Assembly: GCA_015057445.1 (NCBI GenBank)
Contig: SVEI01000011.1
Coordinates: 1 to 57,705, forward strand
Direction: 5' to 3'
DNA: 57,705 nt
Origin: Lachnospiraceae bacterium
Lineage (GTDB): Bacteria; Bacillota; Clostridia; Lachnospirales; Lachnospiraceae
Below, piece by piece: positions 16,224 to 31,398 of this stretch (positions are counted from its first letter, which is position 1; every line of letters begins with the position of its first letter). The notes under the pieces were generated by a model that ran no database searches, had not been told where the DNA came from, and saw only the letters and a list, made by a program, of their open reading frames with translations. A program made the translations under genes and the position numbers.

Positions 16224-17939
16224 CTACATAGCTGCTAACTTAGATTCATTTTGAACATAAACATTCTTGATATTATCAAGACAAGATGCCAATTCGTTAC
16301 ACTCACCAGACTCCTGTTTGATTTCAAACTTAATTCTATCTAATGACTTGTTGATAAAATGTCCAGCAGGTCCAAGTCCAGTAACATTCTCTGGTACCTT
16401 GTTACTTGCTGACGATAACAAAGCATGTGCCTCTCTAAGATTAGCAACAGCTCTATCCATCTCCTTCGGAGATACCTCAAATGCCTGAATTCCAAGTGCG
16501 GATACTATACCATTAGCAATATCAGTAATGGTATCTATTGCATTATTCATTGCATCCTTTGCAGCATCTACGATAGTATCTATAATTCCAGGCTCATCCG
16601 AAACCTCTCGATCACTTCCATCCTTAACATCAATGTCATATCTATCCTCTGCCGCATTAGATATCAGCTTCAGTACATCTCTTATCTGATCCTCAGTAAG
16701 ATCAATTCCCTTGCTCTTAAGAAATTCGTCAATCTTATCTATAGCCCCGTCTGGAAGGTGATCTATCACAAATCCCGCAACGCTCCATAGCCATTCCTGA
16801 TCAATCAACCATTCAGCTGCATCAACCACACCTACTAAGTCACCAGCACCCATATCTTCTAAGCTATCTTTTAGCTTATCAAACATCTCAGGATTTTCCT
16901 CTGCATACTCCAAGATATAACCCAAAAGATAACCAGCTGTATCAATATTATCCGGATCAGTTAGTAAGTCAACAAAGAAATCCTTATCTTCTTTTCCAAA
17001 ATATCCCTGCACCAAATCTCCGATTAGATTTAATGCTTCAGCCTTCTCACCATCACTCATAGATCTTAAATATCCATTAAGCAAATCGTCAGCAACTTCC
17101 ATAGCATAAGCCTGACCGTCCTCATTAACAGTCATAGTTATATTGCCATTTTCATCTACCTGGAAAAAGCTATTTGGAGCATGATATTGTAACACTCCAT
17201 CTATATTCTGAGCTTCATAAAATGTTGTATCTCCCACATCATTAAGCAACAAATTAACAAAGTCAGCATCAACATTATGGTTCTCAATCAAGTCCTGTCT
17301 TGCCAGAATCTCATCACCATATCTCTCAAAAAACTCATCAGAAAATCCCTGTCCATCAAAAGACAAGCATCGATCTACTTCATCCTCACTTAAAAGAGTT
17401 ATGTACTTTGCTTTATTACCACCCTTAGAATGACCAGTTACAGTTATATCATAGTTTTCCAAACCATATTCATCATATATACTTTCATACCATTCTAATG
17501 CATTTTCCTGTTGTGCTGTAGAAACTCCGTCCTCTGCACTAGTCGCTCCACCACCAGTAAAATTATCTTTCCACTCTTGTTCAGCAGTTCCTCTGAATGC
17601 AACAATAGCCTCACCAGTACTATCATTAATCAACAGCACACTTCTTCCACCACCACCATCAGCGGAGTTATCAGTATGTGTTTCTGCAATTCTGATATTC
17701 ATAAGTTCATCATTAGCCTGAATTGCACTTATAGTTTCTTTCCAATCGGCTCCTGTCATCTCTGAACCATACATATGTGAATCTTTTAACGAATCAACAT
17801 CAACTGTTTCTAGCCACTCTCCCACTGTCATATTTTTATTATCATCACTTACAAAACTACTTCCTTCAATATCATTGAAATAAGTTAAGTTTTCTAATAA
17901 GAGTACCTCTTCTGTTGTCAACATATCACCTAATGCCAT
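16224..17939 (-). CDS. Putative T7SS-secreted lipase, TslA-like (N-terminal alpha/beta hydrolase, C-terminal helical domain)
   Basis: The N-terminal 260 residues form an alpha/beta-hydrolase of the Mbeg1/DUF2974 lipase type: AIVAFRGT near 111-117, nucleophile elbow GHSKGGNKA (Ser171), SFDGQGF (Asp195) and YHAPNSFF (His253) as candidate catalytic residues. A long acidic helical middle follows, and the last 80 residues form a WXG/LXG-like helical hairpin (MDRAVANLREAHALLSSA, then NVYVQNESKLAAM). This enzyme-first, secretion-domain-last order is that of the S. aureus T7SS lipase TslA. There is no signal peptide. I prefer the ATG at 17939 (GGAGG six bases upstream) over the 20-codon longer frame. 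It has its own promoter with LytTR-type repeats (18027-18059) and a lipoprotein gene just upstream. Confidence 0.82.
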   Translation of the reverse strand: MALGDMLTTEEVLLLENLTYFNDIEGSSFVSDDNKNMTVGEWLETVDVDSLKDSHMYGSEMTGADWKETISAIQANDELMNIRIAETHTDNSADGGGGRSVLLINDSTGEAIVAFRGTAEQEWKDNFTGGGATSAEDGVSTAQQENALEWYESIYDEYGLENYDITVTGHSKGGNKAKYITLLSEDEVDRCLSFDGQGFSDEFFERYGDEILARQDLIENHNVDADFVNLLLNDVGDTTFYEAQNIDGVLQYHAPNSFFQVDENGNITMTVNEDGQAYAMEVADDLLNGYLRSMSDGEKAEALNLIGDLVQGYFGKEDKDFFVDLLTDPDNIDTAGYLLGYILEYAEENPEMFDKLKDSLEDMGAGDLVGVVDAAEWLIDQEWLWSVAGFVIDHLPDGAIDKIDEFLKSKGIDLTEDQIRDVLKLISNAAEDRYDIDVKDGSDREVSDEPGIIDTIVDAAKDAMNNAIDTITDIANGIVSALGIQAFEVSPKEMDRAVANLREAHALLSSASNKVPENVTGLGPAGHFINKSLDRIKFEIKQESGECNELASCLDNIKNVYVQNESKLAAM

Positions 17940-17957
17940 ATTAAACCTCCATATATA

Positions 17958-17973
17958 ATTAATATTTTCAAAC
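17958..17973 (-). repeat. 16-bp leader motif, copy 2
   Basis: Identical to 16016-16031. It lies between the -10 box of the lipase promoter and its SD. Confidence 0.6.
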
Positions 17974-17986
17974 CCATTTTTACAAT

Positions 17987-18059
17987 AGTATACTACCACA
18001 TAAGTTGGTTGATTTTTTTATTCTCCGACCAATAACCATTTTTTCACGACCAATAACCA
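17987..18059 (-). promoter_or_regulatory. LytTR-type operator and promoter of the lipase gene (site 1)
   Basis: On the minus strand TGGTTATTGGTC occurs twice (18048-18059 and 18027-18038), separated by GTGAAAAAA, so the period is exactly 21 bp, two helical turns. The -10 box TATACT (17987-17992) lies 34 bases downstream and the lipase ATG 88 bases from the repeat edge. No good -35 is visible, as expected for an activated promoter. LytTR-family proteins bind such paired direct repeats; the regulator at 23283-23990 is the likely ligand. Confidence 0.75.
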
Positions 18060-18065
18060 CCCATC

Positions 18066-18101
18066 AAAAAACCCTCTCTGCTACTGTTGTAGCAAAGAGG
18101 G
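18066..18101 (-). terminator. Strong terminator after the lipoprotein gene
   Basis: CCCTCT-C-TGCTAC with GTAGCA-A-AGAGGG forms a long stem with one mismatch and a TGTT loop, followed on the minus strand by TTTTTT. It abuts the lipase operator, isolating the lipase from the upstream operon. Confidence 0.9.
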
Positions 18102-18150
18102 CACTTACCTGACTTTGGTCAAACAATTGGTAAAACCAACTATGTCAGTA

Positions 18151-18969
18151 CTATAAATCAAATGTGTTAAACTGTATGAAATTTAATCTATTTTTCTTTC
18201 TATACTCTAAGCATTCATCCCCAGAAGAGCATTCATCCATTATACCAGGAACAAAATAAACCGAATGGGCTCCATAAATATTTAATGCTCTTATTTCTTC
18301 CTCAACAGTTTTTACCACCTCGGACTTCTTGGTTTCATCTTCAAAAGGCATATCTACGTAAACTTCTACATCCCTTTTCATAGATTTACCCAAAGAAAAA
18401 ATATCATCCATACTGGTATTTGCGTCTACTTCTTTTCCATAAAATCCACTTATTCTAGCATTGACATAGAATTTGTCCAATCCTGCAGTTTTGAATTTTT
18501 CCTCCAACATTTTTTCATATGCAGGCGAAAGCAAATAACCTGCCAAATTGTCGGTAATCACATATTCATCATCTTCAACAATAAGCTGCGCTGTGAAATA
18601 ATTTTCTGTATCATCAATAGTAAACTCCAATTTTGTAACATCACTAGTTTTACTTATGGGTGAAAACGCAAAATATTCAAAATCATATCCTGGGTACTTT
18701 GCATCAAGATAATCATTAGCACTTCTAAATTGATTCAAAGCCTCCAACTGATAGTCATATAGCTTTCCTTCATTAATTCTATCCTCATTTACATATATAC
18801 TACAAAGGATTTTCTTTTCTTCATCTGTCATCTGTATTACATTATTGTCCATGTCATCCTCCTCATTTACATATGAATTATTATTGCCCTGACCACTTCC
18901 CCCTGCATCACAGCCAGTCAACGCAAAACAAGCTAATCCCACCAATGCGATTAATACTTTTTTTCTCAT
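18151..18969 (-). CDS. Lipoprotein, 272 aa; possible immunity or T7SS accessory protein
   Basis: A signal peptide with lipobox LTGC (Cys about residue 20) predicts a membrane-anchored outer lipoprotein. An acidic Asn/Ser-rich linker and a mixed alpha/beta domain without a recognised family follow. GGAGG lies just before a double ATG; I chose the second (18969) for better spacing. It follows the pseudoprotease gene by 13 bases and ends at a strong terminator. In S. aureus the TslA lipase has a lipoprotein immunity partner (TilA); this gene is adjacent to the TslA-like lipase, so such a role is possible, but no sequence match is claimed. Confidence 0.75.
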   Translation of the reverse strand: MRKKVLIALVGLACFALTGCDAGGSGQGNNNSYVNEEDDMDNNVIQMTDEEKKILCSIYVNEDRINEGKLYDYQLEALNQFRSANDYLDAKYPGYDFEYFAFSPISKTSDVTKLEFTIDDTENYFTAQLIVEDDEYVITDNLAGYLLSPAYEKMLEEKFKTAGLDKFYVNARISGFYGKEVDANTSMDDIFSLGKSMKRDVEVYVDMPFEDETKKSEVVKTVEEEIRALNIYGAHSVYFVPGIMDECSSGDECLEYRKKNRLNFIQFNTFDL

Positions 18970-18982
18970 CATTCCTCCACTA

Positions 18983-20149
18983 TCACGATGCCGCTCTTTC
19001 CTGTTTCATTCTCTTTCTATTTTTAAGTCCTTTTGCTAGCAGCAAGCTAAACAATACAACAACTACCAATAAGATAATTGCTATCACAATTAACTTTTCA
19101 TATTTTGCCTTTATTTTCTTTCTAGCTTTTTCTAGCTCAATTATACTATCTTCATATTGCTTTTTAGTAGAATCGATATTAGAGCATACTTCCTCTCCCT
19201 TTTCTATAGCGTTATATAAAGCATCCCATGTTTTCTCTGTGTAACTAAAACGCTTAATTGAAGAAATGTATTCCTTATTCTCTCTAACCAATTCTGTTAA
19301 TTCTAGCTTTAACTTTGCATCTGGCACATCGTATGTCTCATCATCTGCACTTGTAAGATAGTTAATATCCAATGAATCTAATATAATTCTTATATTTTTT
19401 ACTGATATGGCCTTCATCTCTCCATTATGTAAGATGAACATACCAGACACGCAACCTTCATCATCGATTATAGGAGCTCCAGCCATACCTTCTTCAATAT
19501 GCTCTCCAACGTGGAAATATGTTATCTCTTCACCATAGTATGATGCAGTTTGCAACTCTGTAATTATGGTATCATATTCCACCATCTGTCTGTCAGCAAC
19601 CTGACCTTGATCTAGCAAGCTCCTTGATCCCGGATATCCAGTAATATGTATTCTCGCATTCTGAGTTACTTTACTTCCGTCACCTAGCTTATAGTATGAT
19701 TTATCTGCCATGGCCATATCTGTCTCTAACACTGCATATCTTGTATCCTGACTATAGGACTTAAGAGACATACTTGTCATTACACCCATACTACCAATTG
19801 CATAATACTTTAATTCTAGCTTTGAATCCGCAGGTAAACCATTTCTTTTCTTTATGGTTTCGATGACAACGTTATCGCCCTCTAAAATTCCGTAATCTGT
19901 AAAAACGTGCTTAGATGAATTTTGATTACCATCTACTCCAACTAAAAATCCTGTTCCCTGTTTTGCATAATAAGTGTTTCCATTTTCATCTGTATAAACT
20001 GTCAGTATCTTAACAACATTGCTTTTAGTTTCTTCTTCAACAGTCTCCTCCGAAGACTCTTCAGACGCTTGAACAACAATATTAAAATTACAAAGGCAAA
20101 CAAGAGCCATCAAGCATAAAATATATCGTATAAAATTTGTTATCTTCAT
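18983..20149 (-). CDS. Membrane pseudoprotease of trypsin-like fold with FIVAR-like segment
   Basis: Signal peptide, trypsin-like domain, FIVAR-like helical segment (FSYTEKTWDALYNAIEKGEE), C-terminal transmembrane helix and basic tail. It aligns well with the protease at 29581-31398, but all three catalytic positions are changed: His becomes Gly87 (VFTDYG against VITNNH), Asp becomes Arg137 (DTRYAVL against DWDFAVL) and Ser becomes Ala223 (GMAGA against GSSGG). The fold and flanking residues are kept, so this looks like a selected binding or scaffold protein, not decay. The start at 20149 has GGAGG seven bases upstream. It follows the WXG operon and precedes the lipoprotein by 13 bases. Confidence 0.82.
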   Translation of the reverse strand: MKITNFIRYILCLMALVCLCNFNIVVQASEESSEETVEEETKSNVVKILTVYTDENGNTYYAKQGTGFLVGVDGNQNSSKHVFTDYGILEGDNVVIETIKKRNGLPADSKLELKYYAIGSMGVMTSMSLKSYSQDTRYAVLETDMAMADKSYYKLGDGSKVTQNARIHITGYPGSRSLLDQGQVADRQMVEYDTIITELQTASYYGEEITYFHVGEHIEEGMAGAPIIDDEGCVSGMFILHNGEMKAISVKNIRIILDSLDINYLTSADDETYDVPDAKLKLELTELVRENKEYISSIKRFSYTEKTWDALYNAIEKGEEVCSNIDSTKKQYEDSIIELEKARKKIKAKYEKLIVIAIILLVVVVLFSLLLAKGLKNRKRMKQERAAS

Positions 20150-20258
20150 CTTGTATCCTCCACAGTTATACATTAGTAATTTATATTATACCTTTTTTCA
20201 GGCTTGTATTCAAATCCATATTCAAACTTTTTCAAAAAAACTTCTATATATGAACATA

Positions 20259-20311: not shown

Positions 20312-20626
20312 TTAGAAAAATACCTCTGTAGCAAGATTCTGAGAAATAGCTGTAGTCTCTTCCTCAACCTTCTGATACTCATCAGCGATAGCATTTAAGT
20401 CTGTGCTTAATTCCTGAGTAGTATCATACATTCTCTGTGCATCGTCACGTAACTCATCAAACTGGTTAGTGTAAGCATTCTGTGACTGACCTGACCATAC
20501 TGTACCGTTGATAGAATCAACTAAGTCGAACATCTTGTCTGTAGTAGTCTTCATCTCTGTACCCTTGTCTGAAATCTGATTAGCTTTTGCACGAAGGGCT
20601 TCAGGAGTAGTTTTAATTATATCCAT
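20312..20626 (-). CDS. WXG100 family T7SS substrate
   Basis: 104 residues forming a helical hairpin with the WSG turn at about residue 44 and a C-terminal YQKVEEE (YxxxE-type secretion signal). Residues after the signal (TTAISQNLATEVFF) resemble the end of the paralogue at 21387-21701. RBS GGTGG precedes the ATG. It is the last of six small helical genes read from a LytTR-type promoter. WXG100 proteins are exported as dimers by EssC-type ATPases. Confidence 0.9.
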   Translation of the reverse strand: MDIIKTTPEALRAKANQISDKGTEMKTTTDKMFDLVDSINGTVWSGQSQNAYTNQFDELRDDAQRMYDTTQELSTDLNAIADEYQKVEEETTAISQNLATEVFF

Positions 20627-20648: not shown

Positions 20649-20939
20649 TTAGTTCTTAGCAGTTGCTACATTCATACTCTCTGCCTTCTTGTACTCAGCA
20701 ATGATAGTATCAAGAGCCTTAACGTATGAATCGATAACTGAACAAAGATTTTCCATTCTGCCAATATCCTTCTGTGATCTAGCCTTGTAAGCATCAGCTG
20801 CATTACCCTCCCACTCAGCATCGAGTGACTTAATCTGCATCTGAAGTTCTTTGATCTGTGTCTTTAAAGTGCTGTTAAGTGAACTTAACTCTTCCTTCTT
20901 AGCTTCAAGCTGAGAAGCTGTTAACATTATAACTCCCAT
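20649..20939 (-). CDS. WXG100 family T7SS substrate
   Basis: 96 residues, helical hairpin with WEG at about residue 43, and YKKAE near the C-terminus. Two starts are plausible: 20939 (GAGG upstream) and 20927 (GGGAG upstream). Gap of 22 bases to the next WXG gene. Confidence 0.88.
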   Translation of the reverse strand: MGVIMLTASQLEAKKEELSSLNSTLKTQIKELQMQIKSLDAEWEGNAADAYKARSQKDIGRMENLCSVIDSYVKALDTIIAEYKKAESMNVATAKN

Positions 20940-21004: not shown

Positions 21005-21373
21005 TTAATTAGGACCATTATTTCCTGTTGCTGCTGCGGCTAATTCTGCTGCTTTTCTAGCTGCCTCTTCCGCTGCTCTTGCTATAGCCAATGCTCTAAG
21101 CTCAGCTTCTTTAATCTCAGCTGCAATCTTTCTTATTGCATCTGCTGTCTTCTTAACATCATCTCTAGTATCCTGAATTTTTTCTCTTTCCTTAATACAC
21201 TTAGCTACGAAAGCCTGTGAATTCATACCTTCCCAATTACCTTTTAAAGTAGATATAGCCGAATTCAACTCGTTAATTGCTGCGTCCAAGTCCTTTGTTA
21301 CGGATTCTATCTCAGCGGCTTTCTGTATAGCCTGATTATAATTAAAATTTATAGTATATTCTGACAACGCCAT
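21005..21373 (-). CDS. WXG100-like protein with alanine-rich tail
   Basis: 122 residues. The hairpin turn is WEG near residue 47; the second helix continues into an Ala/Glu-rich coiled tail ending in GNNGPN. No clear YxxxE is present, so it may be the partner that depends on a co-secreted paralogue. GGAGG precedes the ATG. Confidence 0.85.
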   Translation of the reverse strand: MALSEYTINFNYNQAIQKAAEIESVTKDLDAAINELNSAISTLKGNWEGMNSQAFVAKCIKEREKIQDTRDDVKKTADAIRKIAAEIKEAELRALAIARAAEEAARKAAELAAAATGNNGPN

Positions 21374-21386: not shown

Positions 21387-21701
21387 TTACATTATTACTT
21401 CTATTGGAAGTGACATAGAAATCTCCGTAGTAGCTTCTTCAGCTTGCTCGTATACACCAGCAATCTTATACAAGTTAGATGGTTCCTTTGCTAACTCAGT
21501 GTAAACCTTAGTATAATCAGCCTTTATGTCATCATTCTTACGTACATGATTATCGCTAGCCTCTCCCTGCCAATATCTTTGGCTCTTATTAACTATCTGG
21601 TCGATTTTGGTATAAGCATTATTCAATTTACTAATATCTTCTTGAAGTCTACCAGCAATCGATGCCAGTTCTTGTGAATCTACTCTTAATAACCCGTTCA
21701 T
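21387..21701 (-). CDS. WXG100-like protein
   Basis: 104 residues with WQG at about residue 44 and YEQAEE near the C-terminus, a YxxxE-type signal. The tail TTEISMSLPIEVIM is similar to that of the 20312-20626 protein. GGAGG lies upstream of the ATG; the gap to the next gene is 13 bases. Confidence 0.87.
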   Translation of the reverse strand: MNGLLRVDSQELASIAGRLQEDISKLNNAYTKIDQIVNKSQRYWQGEASDNHVRKNDDIKADYTKVYTELAKEPSNLYKIAGVYEQAEEATTEISMSLPIEVIM

Positions 21702-21720: not shown

Positions 21721-22026
21721 TTACGCAATACTTACCTCAGAAATCATTCCTGCGATACTCTTCTCCCCATTATTATATGTATCAGTCGATGTATCTTCAT
21801 ACTGAGCCAACAACTTAAGACGATCAATTATATTCTGCATCTGCTTTATCTCCTGATCAAGCTCCTGAAGGAATGCCTCTGAAGCATCGCCATCCCATTC
21901 ACTGTCAAGCTTTGCTTTGCAGCTAATTATGTCTGATAAGCTTTCTTCCATAATTTTAATATTAGCTTTAACTTCATCTGCATCTGAAGCCAATGTAGCC
22001 ATATTACACTTTATTCTGTCTATCAT
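21721..22026 (-). CDS. WXG100-like protein
   Basis: Helical hairpin with WDG near residue 44 of the chosen form. The start at 22026 (protein begins MIDRIKCNM) is favoured by GGGAGG six bases upstream; the longer frame overlaps the preceding gene. The tail is short and lacks a clear YxxxE. Confidence 0.84.
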   Translation of the reverse strand: MIDRIKCNMATLASDADEVKANIKIMEESLSDIISCKAKLDSEWDGDASEAFLQELDQEIKQMQNIIDRLKLLAQYEDTSTDTYNNGEKSIAGMISEVSIA

Positions 22027-22039
22027 ATTATACCTCCCA

Positions 22040-22411
22040 TTATATAGTAACAAATTTTATATCCATAGACTCCATGGCACTCGATACCGTATTGTAGTCA
22101 TACATACCAAATTCCACTTTACTAAAAGAATCATTTGTTTGGAATCCCATCTCCAAAATGTTTTCTTCCATTTCTCTATAACAATCTATTATGTCTTGCA
22201 AGCACTCTGATAACTCTCTTGATTCTCTGTGGTATTCTGCCAGTCTGTCAGCTAACACTTCCATACTGTTGTTACACTTATCTAATGCATAATTCCCTTT
22301 ACCTTCAGATGAAATTTCTCTCAGTACTCTGGAATTCTTTTTAAGTGTAGCAGAAGCCTCACCGAGAGCTCCTCGCGCCTTACCTATACTATTTAGAAAT
22401 ACACTAAACAT
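22040..22411 (-). CDS. Helical T7SS-linked protein lacking the WXG tryptophan
   Basis: 123 residues, largely helical, with the turn region EGKGNYAL in place of WXG and CYREMEE late in the second helix. It is the first gene of the WXG operon. The start at 22411 is preferred (GGAAAG seven or more bases upstream) over a GTG at 22435. It could be a chaperone-like or adaptor partner for the WXG proteins, as Lap proteins are for TslA, but this is inference. Confidence 0.75.
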   Translation of the reverse strand: MFSVFLNSIGKARGALGEASATLKKNSRVLREISSEGKGNYALDKCNNSMEVLADRLAEYHRESRELSECLQDIIDCYREMEENILEMGFQTNDSFSKVEFGMYDYNTVSSAMESMDIKFVTI

Positions 22412-22455
22412 ATCATCACTTTCTTTCCAAATCACTCACTCTTAAGTACAATCAC

Positions 22456-22525: not shown

Positions 22526-22774
22526 CTAGACCATCAAAAGCTTACTTCCATTGATAATATTGTTCTCTGTCAGAGAAATACTACTATTCAAAATTCTGCC
22601 ATCCGTAATAGAACAAAGCATGAATTCTTCAGCAGTTTTATTGAGTGTACTCTTATATTTGTTGGTAAGCATCTCACTAATTTCCTGAACAACACTGGTT
22701 ATTTTTACGGTTTCATCTACTCGAAAATCGTAGGTCGCTCCCAGTGATGGAATATATACATCAATCATAATCAT
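22526..22774 (-). CDS. EsaB/YukD-like ubiquitin-fold T7SS protein
   Basis: 82 residues with a beta-grasp pattern (MIDVYIPSLGATYDFRVDET, then a helix with VVQEISEMLTNKY, and ending in GSKLLMV). Size, pattern and position in an EssC locus match the EsaB/YukD family, a cytoplasmic T7SS component. GGAGG lies nine bases before the first ATG. It is the last gene of the EssC operon. Confidence 0.85.
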   Translation of the reverse strand: MIMIDVYIPSLGATYDFRVDETVKITSVVQEISEMLTNKYKSTLNKTAEEFMLCSITDGRILNSSISLTENNIINGSKLLMV

Positions 22775-22780: not shown

Positions 22781-23314
22781 TTACTCCTCCTTACAATACT
22801 TAGAAATATATCCATTTATAAAATCTTTTGTAGTTTCTGCAGAAATAGCCACTTTTTCTCTTTCCTGTCCGTCAGAAACATTTTTTAGACTTATACTAAG
22901 GCTATTTCCTTCTGCTGCAATTTGCATAAGTTCCTCCACAATTTCCTCCTTATCCATTGCGTAGATACATATTATGTCTCTAGACTTCTCATCAATAGAA
23001 ACCACTGCAATTTTTTCTCCCAAATAACAACATTTGAGAATATGGTCTGTTTTTTCTGCATTTACAGCCATAACATACCTGGACTTTCTAATTATGCCCA
23101 TAATTTCTCTAACATCTTTATCAATTACAAATCCTTCTTGATTATAGTTATCGATAATTTTATTTACATACAAGCTATGTAATACCATACAAATATCTTT
23201 ATTATCCATTGGTTTGGCAGAACCCAATCCATACAAGCTTTTTATTCCAGAATTTGCCATAAGAACCGCCAATTCATTGGAGTTAAGATAATATCTCTTT
23301 TTCGTTGTGTCCAT
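22781..23314 (-). CDS. T7SS-locus cytoplasmic protein of unknown family
   Basis: 177 residues, no membrane segment. The N-terminal part (LNSNELAVLMANSGI, then LHSLYVNKIIDN) looks like a small helical or winged-helix unit; the C-terminal half alternates strands and helices. The layout is loosely reminiscent of EspG-type WXG/PE-PPE chaperones, but I cannot claim homology. It overlaps the LytTR gene by 32 bases and precedes the EsaB-like gene by six, so it is translated as part of the same unit. Confidence 0.65.
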   Translation of the reverse strand: MDTTKKRYYLNSNELAVLMANSGIKSLYGLGSAKPMDNKDICMVLHSLYVNKIIDNYNQEGFVIDKDVREIMGIIRKSRYVMAVNAEKTDHILKCCYLGEKIAVVSIDEKSRDIICIYAMDKEEIVEELMQIAAEGNSLSISLKNVSDGQEREKVAISAETTKDFINGYISKYCKEE

Positions 23315-23990
23315 TACTCATCAACCCCCTAATCGCTTGTTTGTAAGTTCTAGATAAAGGAATCTGTATCTGGTTGTTAAGCACAAGATAATTTTCCGAA
23401 AATCTCACCTTACTTATAAATGTACCATTAACAATATAACTTCTATGACATCTAACAAAGCTATCTGGCAAACTCTTCTCGAATTTGTCTAAGCTACCAT
23501 AGATATTATATTCCATAGAATTTAGTCGAAGACTTAACATCTTATTAGATGCTTCAAGATACAGTATATTATTATATTGTACCTTAATTTTTCCATCAGA
23601 TGTATCTATCCACATTCCCCCTTCTTCCTCAGCCAAGAGTTTATGTAAAAACTCCCCAACCACTTCTTCTACCTCATTTTTAGAATACGGCTTTATGGCT
23701 AATGAAATGGGCCTTATTTGTGGATTCAAATATTTCATAGGTGATATTTTTGCATCGGCAATTAACATTACCTCTATATTAGAAAACTTGTTTCTAATAT
23801 TTTTAACATACTCTAATCCGTCATCTTCACAAATGTTCACAATGGCACATTCTGGTTCTGAATCCGCTTCTGAAATATCATATATAATATTAATTTTTTC
23901 ATTGCTTACATGAGCAGTTACTTCTTTACATATATCGCAAAGAAACTCTCTTTCTTCTTCATCTTCCGAATGTATAAGCATTGTAAACAT
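23283..23990 (-). CDS. LytTR-family transcription regulator with degenerate receiver
   Basis: Residues 1-115 follow the response-regulator fold (acidic SEDEEE after strand 1, conserved Lys in LAIKPYS), but the phospho-acceptor position reads AIVNI, Asn in place of Asp. Residues 125-225 are a LytTR DNA-binding domain with the hallmark FVRCHRSYIVN and IPLSRTYK. No histidine kinase is nearby. The SD AGGAGG overlaps the EssC stop codon, so it is coupled to the ATPase gene. The matching direct repeats at three promoters of this island make it the probable local regulator. Confidence 0.88.
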   Translation of the reverse strand: MFTMLIHSEDEEEREFLCDICKEVTAHVSNEKINIIYDISEADSEPECAIVNICEDDGLEYVKNIRNKFSNIEVMLIADAKISPMKYLNPQIRPISLAIKPYSKNEVEEVVGEFLHKLLAEEEGGMWIDTSDGKIKVQYNNILYLEASNKMLSLRLNSMEYNIYGSLDKFEKSLPDSFVRCHRSYIVNGTFISKVRFSENYLVLNNQIQIPLSRTYKQAIRGLMSNGHNEKEILS

Positions 23991-23996: not shown

Positions 23997-26900
23997 CTAC
24001 CTCCTGGCAAGTGGTACTATCATCTTGATTACTCCATCTGCCATCTCTGATGATTCTAAACCGATACCTGCCTTATACATCTTAGCTTGCTCCTTATATG
24101 GAATAGAGTCAAAATTAAAGTATCTGTTTGATCCTGAGTTACCACCAAAGTGCACTCCTGTCTTAGATGATATAAATAGCTTAAATGCTTTTCTGTAATC
24201 AACTTCATTAATTTTGTCTAAACCAACTACACCGAAGAAGAATATGTTATGAAGCTTACCCTTCTCTGTAATATTCTCAAGGAAACCATTAATATTATTT
24301 TTACCTTCATATACAGCCTTCATATACCATATGAAATCTGAAATTAATATTATGATTGGTCTCTCATTGCTTATTACTTCATATACTTCTTCTTCCTCTA
24401 AATCTTGGGCAATCAAATCCCTCTTAATCTTATTTCTTCTTTGGAATTCAGGAATCATCTTGCTGTAGTAATCAAACAAGCTTTCCTCACTATCGACATA
24501 TGTGACGCAATCTTCGTCTTTATATGCTTCTAAATATTTTGTATTGCCATCAATAATACATACATCTGCGTTTTTCTTTATAGCACTCTGAAGTACAACT
24601 CTTAAGAAATTCTTCTTTCCACTTCTTGGTAGACCAGTAACCAGGTAACAATATATCTTACTTAAGTCAATGCTATAAACAGACGCATCCTCTGCGTTAT
24701 AACCAACTGGCAATAATCTCTTGTCACTGATAGCCTTATCAAAGTCATCAGTGTTGCTAAACTCTGACCAGACAGGTTTTTCTGGAATAACAGGAATAGG
24801 TTTTGCTCTTCTACCCTTCCATGCATCTCTCATCTCTTCGCAAATTGTAGTAATCTTATTAAGTCTCTCGTAATCATCCTGAGCCTCTACGCCAAGAGCT
24901 GTCTGATACTCTAATATTCTCTTTCCATAAATAGCAAGTCCACGTCCCTTAACTCCATTTTCAGGCAATACATCTATACCAAAAGAATGTAATACATCTG
25001 TATACGCATATTTGTCCGCCATCTCTGTAGTTATACAGGTCTTGATATTTTCTGCTATTCTTCCTGGAATTTCTCCACTACCATATCCTGCACTAGACAT
25101 AATAAGGTAAATTCCGTTACTAACACCTTCCTTGGCCAAAGTCATTACATCTGAAAAATACTTTTCTTCTGTCTTCTCATTGAAGGCACCATAGTTATCA
25201 ATAAATACAAATATAGCTGGAATGGTAACTCCATTTACCTGAACATACTGCTTGTAGTTACCACCTCTAAGTAACTTCTTTCGCTCTTCAAGTATACCGC
25301 CAAGCATCTTAAATAATTTGCCAATCTTTTCATACTCGCCTTCGTAAAGCACATCACCAACATGAGGTGCACTTTCCATAGCAGACATCATCTTACTACT
25401 GAAATCGATGGCATAAATATTGACATATGTAGGGTCATACTTGTGAATAAGAGCAAATGCAATTGTTTGTAAGGATGTACTTCTTCCTGATGTAACCATA
25501 CCACAAACTGCATGATGTCCACCTTCTGTAAAGTTCAATCTAAGTGGAATCTGTGCCTGATTCTGTGGGTCATCCAAAAGTCCTACCACAATATCAATAG
25601 ACCACTCTCCAGTATGTGTTACCCATTTTCCATTGGAATAGAAATCCTCTGTTCCACTTGAAATATCCTTCAAATACAAGTGGGATGGAAGAACTGGCAT
25701 CCAAAGCTGTAGCTCATGGGTATAACCATTCTCTTTGGCAACCTCTGCCAAATAATCCTTTACAGCATCAAGCTGTGTTTTCTCTTTTTCTTGTGGCAAC
25801 TTCACCTTATTTGCTGCTGCATAGTTCAACAGATTTCTTATTACATCGCCTTCCATATGCATGGCTTGGTAATAACTTGTTATAAAATCCTGAAGTCTTG
25901 CTGAATTATAAACACTGGCTGGATAATCAATACCGATCTTCTCAAATTCGTTGTAAGCTTCCTCAACTACGCTTTCCATCTTTGTTCCTGATGCAACGCA
26001 CTGATCAATATTAGTATTCTGCTTAATCATTGCGTTAGCTACAACACCTTCAAGTGTCTGAGCCCACTTATACATGCTCTTTTCTTTCTGAGCAGTCTTA
26101 GTGAAGTTTCCTGTCATATCAACCTTACCAGTTAAGCTGATAAGCTTGGCAACATCTGTATTAACATCCTCTTCTTCCTGATATGTAGCACCACTGTATC
26201 CGGACTGGAATAATTCAAATATTTCATCATTACCAACCTGAAGATAACATCTACCAGCCTGTGAAATATAAGCAGCGTCTGGTTTATGAAGCATGTCCAT
26301 ACTATCTTGCTTTTCAGCAACTCTAAGACAAAGTCTAAACTTAGTATTACTCCAAATATTATCATCAACTGTTCCGTTAGGCTTCTGAGTTGCAAGAATA
26401 AGATGAACACCCAAGCTTCGACCTACCTGAGCAACACTTATAAGCTCTCTCATGAAGTCTGGTTCCTCACGCTTAAGCTCCGCAAACTCATCGATTATAA
26501 TAAACAGATGTGGAACTGGAAGTGTAGCTTCATTATTCTTGTAGAGTTTTGTGTATAAGTTTATATTGTTAACTCCACTTTCATTAAAAATAGTCTGTCT
26601 ACGTCTATTCTCACTCTTTATGGAAACCATAGCTCTTCTTACCTGGTTTCCTGAAAGGTTGGATATCTGTCCAATGAGATGTGGCAATCCGTTAAAGAGG
26701 TTTGCCATACCACCACCCTTGTAGTCAATTACGAAGAATCCAATATCATCAGGACTGTAATTTACGGCCAAGGATAACATATAAGTCTGTAGCGTCTCAC
26801 TCTTACCTGAACCTGTAGTACCTGCTACAAGTCCGTGTGGGCCGTGATATTTTTCATGCACATCAAGATAACACAAATTGCCACCTGCTTTTGCACCCAA

Positions 26901-28970
26901 AAAGCCTCTAATATTATCGTATACTCTATTTTTTCTCCATCTGTCTATTACATTCAATTCGCTCAGTCGATTAACACCATACATATCAAAGAAGGACAAT
27001 CCTGAAGGTATATCCCCACCACTTTCTGTCTCTCTGATATAATAATTGGATAATCTTCTTGCAAACTTCTCTATAGAATCATCACTTATCTGATCAAATG
27101 CTATAGCTAATCTAACTTCTTCCTCTTCTGATACGTTATATTTTCCAGCAAAGATTTCATCATTCTCTACTACATATTCACATTCATTTGGAAGGCTTCC
27201 GTAGGAATCTGTTACAATAACTGTAGATAGTCCGTACTTTGGATTATTTTCAAGCACATACTTTGAAATCAATTCGCCCTCTAACATCTCTGGGTTCATA
27301 ACAAACATAATATAGTAAGGGCTTGGTACAGATCCTTCCTTTAGTTCATTAACTTCACCTCTCTGACGGAAGATTCTGGCCAATTCAAAGAATACATCTC
27401 CTGCCTCTTGCTGATTAGAAGCAACATATCTAACCTTCTTATCCTGTGACCATACATGCGGGAACCATTTTACAAAATCCCATTGGTCCATATTATAGGC
27501 TGAGTTATTATTGTACACAAATACCATCTTAACATCTGTGTAACTGTTATTTGCAGCAATCTGTGTAGCCAAAAGCTTAACTATATCAACAGCTCCTGTA
27601 AAATCCTTACCACCGACCAGACCAAGCATTTTGTGCTTCATAAGGTCAACGCCAACCGGCACATTATACAAGGTGCTAAAATTATCTTTGATTATTCCAG
27701 GTTTGTTCAGCAATCCATCTTCCGGAGCCAAAGAGAAGGACTTTCGCGGAATGCTAATATTTGCTTGGAATGGAATATTTCCTAAGCCTAATCTATAAAA
27801 CAAGAAGTCGTCATGTCTGTGGTTTCTGTTCCATAACAGTTCTGACTCAGCATCATATTTTGAACATTCATCTGCACTTCTATACATAGCGTGCATAGCA
27901 TTCATATTGTTATTATATTTTTGTCGTATCTTATCAGTTATCTCAATAAGATATTTGCCGTAAGCGTCAAATCTATGGAGGTCATCCTTCTTCTCTTGCT
28001 TTTTCTGAGATACTCTGTTGATTAATGTCCACATAATTCCCAGCAATGCAGAAGAAACTGACATAATGATACCGGTGTACATAAAGCCACCTCTACCACC
28101 ACCACTTTGCTTGTTTGAATAAATCATCATTATACCACAAAGCAGCATAGGTAGTGACATTGTGAGGGACTGACCTATTGTAAGCAGTAAAGACTGTTCC
28201 TTAGACTGATTCTTGGCCGGAACTGCTTCAATCTCTATAGGAGTCTTGTCTATCTTGATAATATTTCTCGGAGATCTGTGAAGTAAAACACGCTTATCTC
28301 TTTGAATCATATCATCATCGTCGTGGGCTTCTAAAACCGGCGGACAATAAACAGGAAGTACATTATAGTTAATTCGTACATCTTGCTTTGAATTGTCAAT
28401 GGCTAATATCTCTCCTAAGAAAACCAAATCCAAACCCATTATACTGATATGATCACCAAATCTGATAACGGTTTCATCCACTATATGCTTAGAATTTACA
28501 TATAAACCATTAGGACTTTTGTTAATTATAGTCCATCCCTCTGGTCTTCTTGCTATAACAGCATGCTCTCTTGATACCAAGCCCAGCATATCATAGCAGA
28601 TATCCATATCCTGCTTCTTACCTATAGTAATCTGATTTATAGCTGAAATATCAAACTTATCATACACTGCAGGCGCATGTGGAATATCTCTTACTATCAA
28701 GGTTAAGCTCTCTCTATTAACCGTATATACCTGGAGAACATCATTATTATTTAGTCCAACTTCACCAAAATAAGCCTGGTCTTTGATTATTCTATAATCA
28801 GTGGATTCCTTTAAAATCCACTGATTATTTATTGTCTCAAATACCAGTTCAATGTCCTTCTTAATATTAAATTGACTTTTATGTAATACGACAGAATAGT
28901 CTGAGTCACTTATAACAGGAAGTCTTAATTCCTTATAAAATTCATTGAAATATACAGATAAAACGAACAT
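23997..28970 (-). CDS. essC: EssC-type T7SS FtsK/SpoIIIE ATPase
   Basis: The central motor of a Firmicute T7SS, 1657 residues. Order: N-terminal FHA-like region and a clear FHA domain (SREHAVIARR, about 134), two transmembrane helices near 270-330, then three FtsK-type ATPase domains. Domain 1 has an intact Walker A (GTTGSGKSE, about 718) and Walker B (LFIIIDEFAEL). Domain 2 Walker A is VTSGRST, with Arg replacing Lys. Domain 3 has LPRSGKKN (about 1447). GGGAGG lies five bases before the ATG. It forms one transcript with the FHA proteins upstream and LytTR and EsaB-like genes downstream. EsaA, EssA and EssB are absent from the locus. Confidence 0.95.
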   Translation of the reverse strand: MFVLSVYFNEFYKELRLPVISDSDYSVVLHKSQFNIKKDIELVFETINNQWILKESTDYRIIKDQAYFGEVGLNNNDVLQVYTVNRESLTLIVRDIPHAPAVYDKFDISAINQITIGKKQDMDICYDMLGLVSREHAVIARRPEGWTIINKSPNGLYVNSKHIVDETVIRFGDHISIMGLDLVFLGEILAIDNSKQDVRINYNVLPVYCPPVLEAHDDDDMIQRDKRVLLHRSPRNIIKIDKTPIEIEAVPAKNQSKEQSLLLTIGQSLTMSLPMLLCGIMMIYSNKQSGGGRGGFMYTGIIMSVSSALLGIMWTLINRVSQKKQEKKDDLHRFDAYGKYLIEITDKIRQKYNNNMNAMHAMYRSADECSKYDAESELLWNRNHRHDDFLFYRLGLGNIPFQANISIPRKSFSLAPEDGLLNKPGIIKDNFSTLYNVPVGVDLMKHKMLGLVGGKDFTGAVDIVKLLATQIAANNSYTDVKMVFVYNNNSAYNMDQWDFVKWFPHVWSQDKKVRYVASNQQEAGDVFFELARIFRQRGEVNELKEGSVPSPYYIMFVMNPEMLEGELISKYVLENNPKYGLSTVIVTDSYGSLPNECEYVVENDEIFAGKYNVSEEEEVRLAIAFDQISDDSIEKFARRLSNYYIRETESGGDIPSGLSFFDMYGVNRLSELNVIDRWRKNRVYDNIRGFLGAKAGGNLCYLDVHEKYHGPHGLVAGTTGSGKSETLQTYMLSLAVNYSPDDIGFFVIDYKGGGMANLFNGLPHLIGQISNLSGNQVRRAMVSIKSENRRRQTIFNESGVNNINLYTKLYKNNEATLPVPHLFIIIDEFAELKREEPDFMRELISVAQVGRSLGVHLILATQKPNGTVDDNIWSNTKFRLCLRVAEKQDSMDMLHKPDAAYISQAGRCYLQVGNDEIFELFQSGYSGATYQEEEDVNTDVAKLISLTGKVDMTGNFTKTAQKEKSMYKWAQTLEGVVANAMIKQNTNIDQCVASGTKMESVVEEAYNEFEKIGIDYPASVYNSARLQDFITSYYQAMHMEGDVIRNLLNYAAANKVKLPQEKEKTQLDAVKDYLAEVAKENGYTHELQLWMPVLPSHLYLKDISSGTEDFYSNGKWVTHTGEWSIDIVVGLLDDPQNQAQIPLRLNFTEGGHHAVCGMVTSGRSTSLQTIAFALIHKYDPTYVNIYAIDFSSKMMSAMESAPHVGDVLYEGEYEKIGKLFKMLGGILEERKKLLRGGNYKQYVQVNGVTIPAIFVFIDNYGAFNEKTEEKYFSDVMTLAKEGVSNGIYLIMSSAGYGSGEIPGRIAENIKTCITTEMADKYAYTDVLHSFGIDVLPENGVKGRGLAIYGKRILEYQTALGVEAQDDYERLNKITTICEEMRDAWKGRRAKPIPVIPEKPVWSEFSNTDDFDKAISDKRLLPVGYNAEDASVYSIDLSKIYCYLVTGLPRSGKKNFLRVVLQSAIKKNADVCIIDGNTKYLEAYKDEDCVTYVDSEESLFDYYSKMIPEFQRRNKIKRDLIAQDLEEEEVYEVISNERPIIILISDFIWYMKAVYEGKNNINGFLENITEKGKLHNIFFFGVVGLDKINEVDYRKAFKLFISSKTGVHFGGNSGSNRYFNFDSIPYKEQAKMYKAGIGLESSEMADGVIKMIVPLARR

Positions 28971-28984
28971 TTGAACCTCCCAGT

Positions 28985-29563
28985 TTATATTATGCCTATC
29001 TCCATAGTCGAATCCTTGAACTTAATTATATCTCCATGATTTACTTTGACAGGAATATCTGTCAAAACATATTTTTGCTTTCCCCTCAACAATGTTGCTC
29101 TATATTGTTCTGATACATTCTGAATATATAATTCCTTGGACTGCTTCATAAATCGTAGGTGCTTTCCAGCAATCTCATCCTCATTAATGCACACCTTATT
29201 TGTCTTATCACTACCCAAATATGCTTCATCCATAACATTTATAACATACTTTTTCGTAGAAATATTTCCATGGTAAACCAAGTGCACACATATGGCATCT
29301 ATAGGTTCAACCTTTGATTCTTCATGGAACTCTACACTGTAAGGTACTGCCTCTATGTCAGAAATAGACTTATCTACATGATGATACTCATTCTGTAGTT
29401 TTGCGTCTAATTGCTCTTCTCTGACAGATCTCTTGTACTGAGAAAGCATCTCCTTATATCGTTTATTTTTCTTCTTCGTGATTATATTTGCAACGATTAA
29501 CGAGACAATAATCACTGCTTCTGCAATTATTATACCTATGTAAAAATATTGATTTTGAAACAT
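28985..29563 (-). CDS. Single-pass membrane protein with FHA-like cytoplasmic domain
   Basis: An N-terminal transmembrane helix (about 8-30) is followed by a Lys-rich coil and a C-terminal 100-residue FHA-like domain (AYLGSDKTNKVCINEDEIAGKHLRF, then HGDIIKFKDSTMEIG). FHA domains read phospho-threonine, so a link to the island's Ser/Thr kinase is plausible. I chose the ATG at 29563 (GGAG six bases upstream) over longer TTG/ATG starts. It lies between the FHA protease and EssC genes with tight spacing. Confidence 0.8.
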   Translation of the reverse strand: MFQNQYFYIGIIIAEAVIIVSLIVANIITKKKNKRYKEMLSQYKRSVREEQLDAKLQNEYHHVDKSISDIEAVPYSVEFHEESKVEPIDAICVHLVYHGNISTKKYVINVMDEAYLGSDKTNKVCINEDEIAGKHLRFMKQSKELYIQNVSEQYRATLLRGKQKYVLTDIPVKVNHGDIIKFKDSTMEIGII

Positions 29564-29580
29564 ATTATTCTCCATTAAAA

Positions 29581-31398
29581 TTAACAACCAAGTCTAAAAA
29601 CAAATTCTACATCAGAAAGATAAATCACATCCCCATCGTGTAGTGCTTTCTTATCTCCTGGTGCTATTCTTTCTCCATTTAGATATGAGAAATTAGTTGA
29701 ACCTAAATCCTCAATGAAAAAGTCATCATACTTTCTTGTAATCTTTGCATGTTTACGGCTAACTGTGTCCACCTTAACCACATAGTCTACATATTCTGGT
29801 ACTTTACCGATAATAAACTCTTCTCCATCTATGAAGATGTTTTCTCCAGTAGCTGTACGACACATAAATCCATTTATGGTTGGATTGGCAATATTAGTCA
29901 ATATAGTAGTTCCTGGATTAACCTCTGCAAGAAGAGTAGTTCCAACAGGATCTATTGTAGCTGATGATTCTCTAAAGGCTGGAACATTCCTATCTCCACC
30001 ATTTGAATATAGCTGTGAACTATTTCCATGCTGTGACATATTTGTAGGTTGTGGAATATGTGTAGGCTGCGGAATGTTTGTAGGCTGAACATTAACGTTC
30101 ATGTCCTGAGCCTTAAACTTCAATTCAGCACTATTTTCATTTGCCTGTGGCAAAGTTTTAATTTGCTGACTTTCTTTCTTCTTAGCCTTATTCTTCTTTC
30201 CCTTTTTAACTAATACAACAATAAGTACTACTATAAGTGCTACGAGAATAACACCACCAACACTTATGGCAACTATTAATGGCACATTAGATTTCTTCTC
30301 TACCTTCTTTAGGTTATCAATGGCATTTCTCAGGTTAATAGTATCACTATCTATAGTTGTCTGTGGTGCCATTGGATCTTCATAGGTGATTTTTGCGTAT
30401 TCCAAATTCAGATTCAAATCACGAAAGCTTTCTTCTGTATATACGCCGTCATTTCCCTCATCGTAAATAAGCTGCGCTTCCATTATAACTCTATTCAATT
30501 CATTCTTATCAGTAGTAGGTTGAACTATAACCTCCTCTGTTGTTGCATTCTCTATTTCGTCTATGGATTTGTCATCTTCAATGTAAACAACTCCTGAACG
30601 CTCTAGATATCCCTTTATGTTGTTTATAGGCAATGCACAATATGTTCCATCAGTACTGTCCTTGTAGGTAGTAATACCCATAACTCTACCGTACTTATCT
30701 ACAAGTGCACCACCTGAACTTCCAGACTCTAATCTTGCGTCAAAGCTAATCACTCCACCATCAAGATTCACACACTTTCCATTAGTTGTTATTACATCTT
30801 TGGCAGTGAAAGAAACTGCATTACCATAATTTACAGAAGGAAGGCCAATAGTGGAAATCTCCTGCTCTAAAGAAACATTTTCACTATTTCCCAATACAGC
30901 TGGAGTCTTGTCAGACTGACTTGAAAGAGATAATACAGCAAAATCCCAATCATTACTTGAAAGAGCAACTGTTGCAATGTTGTATATATCTGCTTCCTGT
31001 ACTATAGCAATAGAATATGTTGCCACATTCTGTGATGAGTCCTCTGTTTTAACAAATGATACATCATAACCAAGCTTCTCTGTAAGGTAAGCACCTGCCT
31101 CTGTCTTTAAAGTATCTGACATATATGTAAGGTGATTGTTGGTAATAACTGTCTTACCTTCAATTAATATTCCACTACCACTCTGTAAGATATGGTATAC
31201 AGAATTAGTATCCTGATACAGCAATACTACTTGAACTATACTCTCACTTGCATTATATCCTTCAAACACCACTTCCTCTGTATCTGATTCTGTGGCCGAA
31301 ATACTAGATACATTAAAAATCACCGAAACAAAAACTAAAACTAAACTTACAATAAGTGCTATATACCTTTTACAGCACAAAAAAGACATCTTCTTCAT
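29581..31398 (-). CDS. Membrane serine protease with cytoplasmic FHA domain
   Basis: Order: signal peptide (about 1-36); trypsin-like protease with triad His89 (TNNHL), Asp152 (DWDFAVL) and Ser228 (GSSGG); a FIVAR-like helical segment; a transmembrane helix; a Lys-rich stretch; a linker with PQPTNIPQPTHIPQPT-like repeats; and a C-terminal FHA domain (VSRKHAKITRKYDD, DLGSTNFSYLNG). The protease faces outside, the FHA domain inside. It may process T7SS substrates, in a place like that of mycosins in mycobacterial systems, though the fold differs. The ATG at 31398 has GGAGGAG six bases upstream; the earlier ATG at 31419 has none. It opens the T7SS core operon, behind LytTR-type site 3. Confidence 0.88.
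   Translation of the reverse strand: MKKMSFLCCKRYIALIVSLVLVFVSVIFNVSSISATESDTEEVVFEGYNASESIVQVVLLYQDTNSVYHILQSGSGILIEGKTVITNNHLTYMSDTLKTEAGAYLTEKLGYDVSFVKTEDSSQNVATYSIAIVQEADIYNIATVALSSNDWDFAVLSLSSQSDKTPAVLGNSENVSLEQEISTIGLPSVNYGNAVSFTAKDVITTNGKCVNLDGGVISFDARLESGSSGGALVDKYGRVMGITTYKDSTDGTYCALPINNIKGYLERSGVVYIEDDKSIDEIENATTEEVIVQPTTDKNELNRVIMEAQLIYDEGNDGVYTEESFRDLNLNLEYAKITYEDPMAPQTTIDSDTINLRNAIDNLKKVEKKSNVPLIVAISVGGVILVALIVVLIVVLVKKGKKNKAKKKESQQIKTLPQANENSAELKFKAQDMNVNVQPTNIPQPTHIPQPTNMSQHGNSSQLYSNGGDRNVPAFRESSATIDPVGTTLLAEVNPGTTILTNIANPTINGFMCRTATGENIFIDGEEFIIGKVPEYVDYVVKVDTVSRKHAKITRKYDDFFIEDLGSTNFSYLNGERIAPGDKKALHDGDVIYLSDVEFVFRLGC

What the first reader, a model, noticed from the sequence alone, without database searches (positions are those of the whole stretch)
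16224..31398. Divergent type VII secretion island lacking EsaA, EssA and EssB but rich in FHA and protease parts
Seen: EssC with three ATPase domains, an EsaB/YukD-like protein, six WXG-type proteins, two membrane FHA proteins, a serine protease and its dead paralogue, and no gene resembling EsaA, EssA or EssB between 16 and 31.4 kb. Known: Firmicute T7SSb normally needs those membrane parts. Inference: the FHA membrane protein (28985-29563) and the protease-FHA fusion replace them, giving a distinct T7SS subtype that may respond to Thr phosphorylation.
Basis: partly seen in the sequence, partly recalled or inferred. Interest (0 to 1): 0.85.

Follow-up and report, generated by a model that had tools for sequence, protein, structure and literature searches.

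The report
Unusual protein-export machine with kinase wiring
This bacterium carries a type VII protein-export machine of a widespread build that we did not find described, in which membrane proteins with interchangeable outer domains and phosphate-reading inner domains stand where the usual membrane parts would be, so export may be controlled by protein phosphorylation.

Summary
The island is real and lacks EsaA, EssA and EssB. Its EssC belongs to a lineage found in at least 80 other loci (Lachnospiraceae, Oscillospiraceae and others), with a recurring order: TM-FHA protein, EssC, LytTR regulator, EspG-fold chaperone, YukD-like protein, WXG array. An ectodomain-TM-FHA protein, a Ser/Thr kinase or a PPM phosphatase is usually in the locus. 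T7SS subtypes without EsaA/EssA/EssB were published in 2024 (T7SSc-j). T7SSi is nearest in gene order, but the window lineage is separate and lacks a TsiM-like protein.

A membrane kinase lies 15 kb further on. The genome does encode EsaA, EssA and EsaB, in a partial T7SSb locus on another contig. "Protease" is mostly a misnomer: 17 of 22 trypsin-TM-FHA proteins lack the catalytic Ser, and VWA domains occur on the same scaffold, so the outer domain is probably a binding module. The FHA of 28985-29587 lost its pocket Ser; EssC and the protease fusion keep theirs.

Best reading: a new T7SS variant whose EssC is assembled or gated by kinase-FHA contacts instead of the EssB pseudokinase. Parts are shown; the mechanism is inferred, and the nearest relatives show no kinase close to essC.

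The parts
29581..31419 (-). Signal peptide / trypsin-fold ectodomain / TM / cytoplasmic FHA protein; His-Asp-Ser triad intact here
   Evidence: Trypsin_2 E 1.8e-16 and FHA E 6.6e-15; triad H/D/S; FHA motif kept
28985..29587 (-). N-terminal TM helix plus FHA domain, directly upstream of essC; pocket Ser replaced by Ala
   Evidence: AlphaFold pLDDT 88.7, helix 3-68 then strands; the 50 PDB matches listed are FHA-domain or FHA-containing entries; GSAH at the four pocket positions
23997..28970 (-). EssC/TsxC ATPase with N-terminal FHA, pThr pocket kept
   Evidence: TIGR03928 1072.8 bits; trees; motif
23283..23990 (-). LytTR DNA-binding regulator (TsiN-like)
   Evidence: LytTR E 8e-22; profile built from the lineage hits the f22 (T7SSi-like) gene at 3e-45 to 2e-42
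22781..23314 (-). EspG-fold substrate chaperone (TsxG)
22526..22774 (-). YukD/EsaB-like protein (TsxB)
   Evidence: PF08817 E 4.4e-4, below cut-off; a match within 3 kb of EssC in 49 of 69 loci
22040..22435 (-). 131-aa protein, probable WXG/LXG-like partner; no WXG match in Pfam
   Evidence: 29% identity over 87 aa to the N-terminus of 9521-10918, E 9e-6 for one comparison
21721..22053 (-). WXG100 protein
   Evidence: PF06013 E 6.6e-11
21387..21701 (-). WXG100 protein
   Evidence: PF06013 E 2.1e-8
21005..21373 (-). WXG100 protein
   Evidence: PF06013 E 1.9e-8
20649..20939 (-). WXG100 protein
   Evidence: PF06013 E 4.4e-10
20312..20626 (-). WXG100 protein, candidate TsxA
   Evidence: PF06013 E 1.9e-17; TIGR03930 62.6 bits, cut-off 44.85
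18983..20173 (-). Signal peptide / pseudo-trypsin / TM protein without FHA, in the place after the WXG array where many relatives carry VWA-TM-FHA or trypsin-TM-FHA
   Evidence: Trypsin_2 E 9.8e-7; triad positions G/R/A; place
18151..18972 (-). Lipoprotein-like protein, paired with the lipase (possible immunity protein, inferred)
   Evidence: Such pairs also in L039, L114, L145
16224..17999 (-). Mbeg1-like lipase, candidate secreted effector with a C-terminal helical targeting region (inferred)
   Evidence: PF11187 E 3.6e-10
9521..10918 (-). Candidate effector: WXG/LXG-like N-terminus and DUF3114
   Evidence: PF11311 E 2.4e-49
6277..8652 (-). Transmembrane Ser/Thr kinase, catalytic residues intact (TsxD-like); 15 kb from essC
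   Evidence: Pkinase E 1.2e-31; K, D, N, DFG kept

Best explanation
The island is a type VII secretion locus of a distinct and widespread lineage, closest in gene order to the published T7SSi but separate from it. EssC is the motor. The YukD-like protein, the EspG-fold chaperone and the WXG proteins deliver substrates such as the lipase. The place held by EssB (pseudokinase) and EsaA (outer part) in T7SSb is taken by a transmembrane Ser/Thr kinase plus single-pass proteins that carry a swappable outer domain (VWA, or a mostly dead trypsin fold) and an inner FHA domain. The kinase phosphorylates threonines on itself or on partners; the FHA domains of EssC and of these proteins bind them and so assemble or gate the channel at the membrane; PPM phosphatases reverse it. 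The LytTR protein controls expression. Shown here: parts, order, phylogeny, conserved pockets, loss of the protease site, co-occurrence. Inferred: the phospho-switch, the assembly role, the secretion of the lipase.
For: EssC lineage and 80 related loci, most with the core order. EspG fold. EssC pThr pocket 70 of 81 lineage, 0 of 8 T7SSb, 1 of 13 T7SSf-like, 0 of 5 T7SSi-like; a pattern count that needs no alignment gives 60 of 81, 0, 0, 0. STK or PPM within 6 kb in 37 of 53 loci, within 8/9 kb in 32 of 44; none in the eight T7SSb loci. Kinase catalytic residues kept in 55 of 59 domains, the window's included. Ectodomain-TM-FHA protein in 23 of 44 long-flank loci; VWA metal-site motif kept in 24 of 25. 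Full-length trypsin-TM-FHA in 10 of 150 genomes, all 10 among the 29 with a non-T7SSb EssC, P 1.7e-8; without the two genomes that are in the profile itself, 8 of 8 in 27 of 148, P 4.7e-7. In B. subtilis the EssC FHA region binds the EssB pseudokinase, apparently without phosphorylation (PMC9600267, passages). Mycosin is needed for stable ESX complexes while protease activity of MycP1 is dispensable (PMC5082899, abstract).
Against: The window itself and its close relatives L093-L096 and L112 have no STK or PPM within 6 kb of essC; the window kinase is 15 kb away with a MoxR/VWA operon between, and no PPM was found in the locus. In L093-L095 and L112 a protein of about 2000 aa holds the place of the window's trypsin-FHA protein. 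21 of 44 long-flank loci show no ectodomain-TM-FHA protein. Arg or Lys at pocket position 118 is kept in only 35 of 81 EssCs (with Ser, His, Asn). The TM-FHA protein next to essC has a broken pocket here. The trypsin-FHA profile was built from T7SS loci, so the association may be overstated. No phosphorylation or secretion data exist. Trees are FastTree on part of the rows.
Confidence: 0.5

Rival explanations
1. It is a plain member of a subtype already named (T7SSi, or T7SSe/j), with extra regulatory genes that are not part of the machine.
For: The EssC-LytTR-EspG-YukD order matches the T7SSi gene set and is seen in unnamed f22 genomes with a 442-503 aa C-terminal-TM protein like TsiM. STK, PPM and FHA parts are listed for T7SSe/f/j in PMC11217815.
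Against: EssC of f22 falls outside the window lineage. The TsiM-like profile finds nothing in the window or the 80 loci, best lineage E 0.036. The pocket is lost in f22, 0 of 5. The main text of Garrett et al. has no 'trypsin' or 'peptidase' and uses 'protease' only for mycobacterial mycosins.
Confidence: 0.27
2. The machine borrows EsaA and EssA from the partial T7SSb locus on contig C10, so nothing was replaced.
For: C10 carries EsaA (E 4.6e-83), EssA (1.7e-11), EsaB (6.8e-11), a WXG-like protein and an Rhs protein. The assembly holds a single EssC.
Against: EssB is absent from the assembly. In the family sample 3 of 16 lineage genomes have any hit to the EsaA model and 0 of 16 a YukC hit over the cut-off; the hit of G090 has no EssA/EsaB beside it, those of G148 were not examined. 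The assembly is 82% complete, so the EssB-EssC end of C10 may simply be missing.
Confidence: 0.12
3. The protease is a true processing enzyme of the system, cutting secreted WXG or lipase proteins.
For: The window copy keeps His, Asp and Ser, as do 4 of the other 21 FHA-bearing relatives.
Against: 17 of 22 FHA-bearing proteins and the second window copy lack the Ser.
Confidence: 0.1

Closest known systems
T7SSi (Garrett, Higginson, Palmer 2024, PMC11217815)
   Same: FHA-bearing EssC, YukD-like protein, EspG-like chaperone and LytR-type regulator by the published description; same gene order in the unnamed f22 genomes that fit it
   Different: No TsiM-like protein; EssC outside the f22 group; pThr pocket kept; TM-FHA and VWA/trypsin-TM-FHA genes, kinases and PPMs added; found in many Lachnospiraceae and Oscillospiraceae instead of Vallitalea only
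T7SSe / T7SSj (same paper)
   Same: FHA-EssC with pThr motif, transmembrane STK, FHA protein; PPM in many relatives
   Different: No DUF6382 match in the window FHA proteins; chaperone and LytTR genes present; no protease or VWA-TM-FHA protein described there
T7SSb (S. aureus Ess, B. subtilis Yuk)
   Same: FHA-EssC motor, WXG100 proteins, YukD-like protein, lipase-type candidate substrate
   Different: EsaA, EssA, EssB absent from the locus; EssC outside the T7SSb group (local support 100)
Mycosin MycP of T7SSa
   Same: Membrane-anchored protease-fold part whose catalysis can be dispensable
   Different: Mycosins are subtilisin-type (recalled); here trypsin fold with a cytoplasmic FHA domain; convergent, not homologous

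Membership tests
Type VII secretion system (general) | EssC/EccC-type ATPase | tested here: met
   TIGR03928 1072.8 bits, cut-off 778.4
Type VII secretion system (general) | WXG100 proteins at the locus | tested here: met
   Five over the Pfam cut-off
Type VII secretion system (general) | YukD/EsaB ubiquitin-like protein | tested here: inconclusive
   PF08817 E 4.4e-4, below the curated cut-off; conserved position
Type VII secretion system (general) | EssC-dependent secretion | not testable with these tools
   needs an essC deletion and secretome
T7SSb | EsaA, EssA and EssB encoded with EssC | tested here: not met
   No hit in the window or 80 related loci. The T7SSb loci match by construction; the C10 genes are an independent positive
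T7SSb | EssC in the T7SSb group | tested here: not met
T7SSi | FHA-EssC, LytTR-type regulator, EspG-like chaperone, YukD in one run | tested here: met
   the YukD match is below the curated cut-off
T7SSi | TsiM-like C-terminal-TM protein | tested here: not met
   Profile from five f22 loci finds none in the window or the 80 loci
T7SSi | EssC grouping with TsiC | tested here: inconclusive
   f22 EssCs fall outside the lineage, but f22 is unnamed and only presumed to be Vallitaleaceae
T7SSe / T7SSj | DUF6382-FHA protein (TsxJ) | tested here: not met
   No DUF6382 match in the two window FHA membrane proteins or EssC
T7SSe / T7SSj | Transmembrane STK at the locus | tested here: inconclusive
   Present at 6277-8652, but 15 kb from essC
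T7SSe / T7SSj | EssC grouping with TseC/TsjC | not tested

The most novel reading that the evidence does not exclude
A further T7SS subtype, common in Lachnospiraceae, that shows a phospho-dependent form of the EssC-EssB contact: EssC FHA domains read phosphothreonine on active transmembrane kinases, and exchangeable VWA or pseudo-trypsin outer domains, tethered to FHA domains, form the outer part that EsaA or mycosin supplies elsewhere. T7SSb would then be the lineage in which kinase and FHA both lost their chemistry and became a fixed joint.
Probability: 0.27. Interest if true: 0.8.

Novelty: new variant of a known kind. Interest (0 to 1): 0.6.

Why it matters
Nearly all T7SS mechanism comes from mycobacteria, S. 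aureus and B. subtilis (general knowledge). In the family sample (150 genomes of different genera), this lineage is in 16 genomes, against 7 with an EssB over the cut-off, so T7SSb is the rarer form there. If the kinase-FHA link is real, it makes a standing question testable: why EssC carries FHA domains and EssB a dead kinase. The repeated loss of catalysis in a secretion-linked protease fold, and its exchange for a VWA domain, also gives a clean comparison with mycosins, where catalysis can be dispensable but the protein is not.

Tried and rejected
EssB-like fold in 28985-29587: rejected; the model is a TM helix plus FHA, and the 50 PDB matches listed are FHA-domain or FHA-containing entries. 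A second EssC in the genome: none found; PF01580 matches only EssC and FtsK, in an 82%-complete assembly. The island as a degenerate copy of a T7SSb: rejected; EssC is intact and of another group. Other EsaA-model hits in the family as signs of T7SSb: 12 places were fetched, out of 59 listed matches in 39 genomes; none has EssA, EsaB or EssB beside it, EsaA scores run from 7e-13 to 9e-4, and 11 of 12 have 5-6 predicted TM segments (some places are cut by contig ends); only C10 scores 1e-84. A link of the MoxR-DUF58-VWA operon to the machine: not supported, since MoxR and DUF58 were not found in the 80 related loci; but their flanks end 10 kb or less beyond EssC, so this is weak. My first count of kinase motifs was wrong for technical reasons and was replaced by an alignment-based count. 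The first EssC tree lacked the f22 rows and was rebuilt. Literature searches for this combination listed only PMC11217815 as relevant to new subtypes.
Full report
What is there. On the minus strand, 31.4 to 16.2 kb, lie in order: a trypsin-TM-FHA protein, a TM-FHA protein, EssC, a LytTR protein, a 177-aa protein, a YukD-like protein, six small proteins (five WXG100 over the Pfam cut-off), a second trypsin-like membrane protein, a lipoprotein-like protein and an Mbeg1-like lipase. The same strand goes on with a MoxR-DUF58-(166 aa)-VWA-VWA-TPR run (16.0-10.9 kb), a DUF3114 protein with a WXG-like N-terminus, a membrane protein and a transmembrane Ser/Thr kinase ending at 6277.

EsaA, EssA, EssB. 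I built profiles from T7SSb loci of the same bacterial family (up to eight loci, L051-L057 and L070; 5 EsaA, 5 EssA, 2 EsaB, 7 EssB sequences) and searched the window and the 80 related loci. For EsaA, EssA and EssB no hit was better than about E 0.02. The training loci match by construction; the independent positive is contig C10 of the same genome, which carries EsaA (E 4.6e-83), EssA (1.7e-11) and EsaB (6.8e-11) in T7SSb order, with a WXG-like protein and an Rhs protein. YukC (PF10140) has no match in the whole assembly, which is 82.4% complete. The island lacks these genes; the genome does not lack EsaA and EssA.

Relatives. An EssC alignment of 11 rows gave 80 loci from one-per-species genomes: Lachnospiraceae, Oscillospiraceae, Blautia luti, Anaerosporobacter faecicola, Oribacterium, Anaerostipes, Lachnoanaerobaculum saburreum and others. 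Neighbourhood counts come from the window plus 79 of the 80 (L169 was left out because its EssC is cut to 873 aa), each with its own denominator. With at least 3 kb downstream (69): LytTR 52, chaperone 51, YukD 49, all three 37. With at least 9 kb downstream (56): two or more WXG proteins 44. With at least 0.8 kb upstream (74): adjacent TM-FHA protein 35; by size and topology alone 44 loci have such a gene. With at least 8 kb up and 9 kb down (44): ectodomain-TM-FHA protein 23 (VWA 16, trypsin 9, both 2). VWA-TM-FHA proteins lie downstream of EssC in 17 cases and upstream in 8, trypsin-TM-FHA proteins downstream in 12 and upstream only in the window.

Kinases and phosphatases. Counted within equal flanks, STK or PPM genes lie within 8 kb up and 9 kb down in 32 of 44 loci and within 6 kb either side in 37 of 53. 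No STK, PPM, FHA, VWA or trypsin hit was seen in the eight T7SSb loci; six of them have 6 kb on both sides. Against my reading: the window and its close relatives L093-L096 and L112 are among the loci without STK or PPM within 6 kb. In L094 a kinase lies about 9 kb upstream, in the window 15 kb downstream of EssC. In L093-L095 and L112 a membrane protein of about 2000 aa holds the upstream place. The genome has 15 kinase hits in all, so a kinase in trans is possible.

Phylogeny. FastTree trees held 25 and 19 lineage rows, not all. In one search the window EssC lies in a 27-row set with local support 100; T7SSb (8 rows), a T7SSf-like group (11 of the 13 rows I had so labelled, by an FHA protein and a protein of about 350 aa whose AAA nature I did not test) and f22 (5 rows) are separate sets with 100 each. 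f22 is an unnamed family of the same order; genome size and gene content suggest Vallitaleaceae, hence T7SSi, but this is not verified. The f22 loci have a 442-503 aa protein with C-terminal TM, then EssC, LytTR, chaperone, YukD. The LytTR and chaperone profiles of the window lineage hit the f22 genes at 3e-45 to 2e-42 and 3e-10 to 6e-7. In the family sample, 16 of 150 genomes have the lineage, the window's genome included (by EssC identity of 38-60%, or by the tree for L042 and L047-L049).

FHA and kinase chemistry. Ser133, His136 and Asn154 of the EssC FHA are all kept in 70 of 81 lineage EssCs (73 and the window, plus 8 others placed there by the tree), 0 of 8 T7SSb, 1 of 13 T7SSf-like and 0 of 5 f22; a pattern count without alignment gives 60 of 81, 0, 0, 0. 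A stricter test that also asks for Arg or Lys at position 118 gives 35 of 81. Kinase catalytic residues are kept in 55 of 59 domains, including the window's; 23 of these have DFN instead of DFG, one of the other four is merely cut off. The TM-FHA protein next to EssC is mixed: 16 of 44 keep GRSH, while the window has GSAH.

The protease. Full-length trypsin-TM-FHA proteins were found in 10 of 150 genomes of the family sample, all 10 among the 29 genomes with an EssC over the cut-off and no YukC over the cut-off (P 1.7e-8; without the two genomes that are in the profile itself P 4.7e-7). At most 10 candidates a genome were scored and the profile came from T7SS loci, so the association may be overstated. 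The proteins are not always near essC: in G143, G029, G090, G147, G012 and G129 they are on other contigs. Pooled with 12 there are 22 FHA-bearing proteins; His, Asp and Ser are all intact in 5 (window, G058, G090, G148, G012); the Ser is lost in 17, and in 15 of these the His too. The window's second copy has Gly/Arg/Ala and no FHA. VWA-TM-FHA proteins share the topology and keep the metal-site motif DxSxS in 24 of 25. So the outer domain is most likely a binding module, and the FHA end is the constant part.

How it probably works. In B. subtilis the FHA region of EssC binds the pseudokinase domain of EssB, apparently without phosphorylation (PMC9600267, passages seen). Here EssB is missing, the EssC pocket is kept, and kinases with intact active sites, phosphatases and further FHA membrane proteins often accompany EssC. 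The simplest reading is that kinase-made phosphothreonines recruit EssC and the outer-domain proteins into one membrane complex. Garrett et al. 2024 (abstract, parts 2-5 of 7 of the text, and passages) raised phospho-control for several subtypes, so the idea is theirs; what is new here is the lineage, the exchangeable VWA/pseudo-trypsin-FHA parts and the contrast in conservation. Mycosins give a precedent for a protease part whose catalysis is dispensable (PMC5082899, abstract and outline). A C-terminal targeting region of the lipase is inferred from TslA (PMC10730906, search listing only; described in PMC11217815); my comparison of that region was weak. That TilA of S. aureus is a lipoprotein immunity protein is recalled and comes from no call.

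Limits. Uncultured assemblies with short contigs hide distant parts; gene calls are mechanical; the trees have no bootstrap; I saw no experiment on this lineage. Absence from print rests on the searches, 75 of an open-access library only; supplements of PMC11217815 were not seen.

Noticed in passing
own genome contig C10 (L087: 442-10176): Partial T7SSb locus: EsaA, WXG-like, EssA and EsaB homologues, small partners and a 1742-aa Rhs protein, with Rhs remnants after it; EssB and EssC are not in the assembly.
   Followed up: yes
own genome contig C90 (L079, L080): Nine of the genome's 15 kinase hits lie within about 34 kb of this contig, with PPM, FHA and LytTR genes and a 743-aa VWA-TM-FHA protein, and no T7SS motor.
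   Followed up: partly
own genome contig C11 (L083: 2-8995): FHA, PPM, TPR-kinase, single-TM low-complexity protein and a 1445+ aa Ig-like protein with signal peptide, resembling parts of the T7SSe/j set, without an EssC on this short contig.
   Followed up: partly
window 10950-16004: MoxR, DUF58, a 166-aa membrane protein, two VWA membrane proteins and a TPR protein in one run between the lipase and the DUF3114 gene.
   Followed up: partly
L062, L067: Trypsin-TM-FHA (L062) and VWA-TM-FHA (L067) proteins also occur in loci of the T7SSf-like EssC group, so these modules are not confined to one T7SS type.
   Followed up: no
L038: 4348-9315: EssC reading frame broken into two pieces in one relative (G147).
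   Followed up: no
L122 6214-8385, L117 17066-18079, L102 3845-4741: Three kinase-like proteins in lineage loci have lost catalytic residues, a possible parallel to the EssB pseudokinase.
   Followed up: no
L117 (Blautia luti): A WXG array lies upstream of EssC, an altered gene order within the lineage.
   Followed up: no
L093, L094, L095, L112 upstream of EssC: Membrane proteins of about 2000 aa in the place where the window has the trypsin-TM-FHA protein; not identified.
   Followed up: no
window 56916-57594: Cluster of six tRNA genes at the window end.
   Followed up: no
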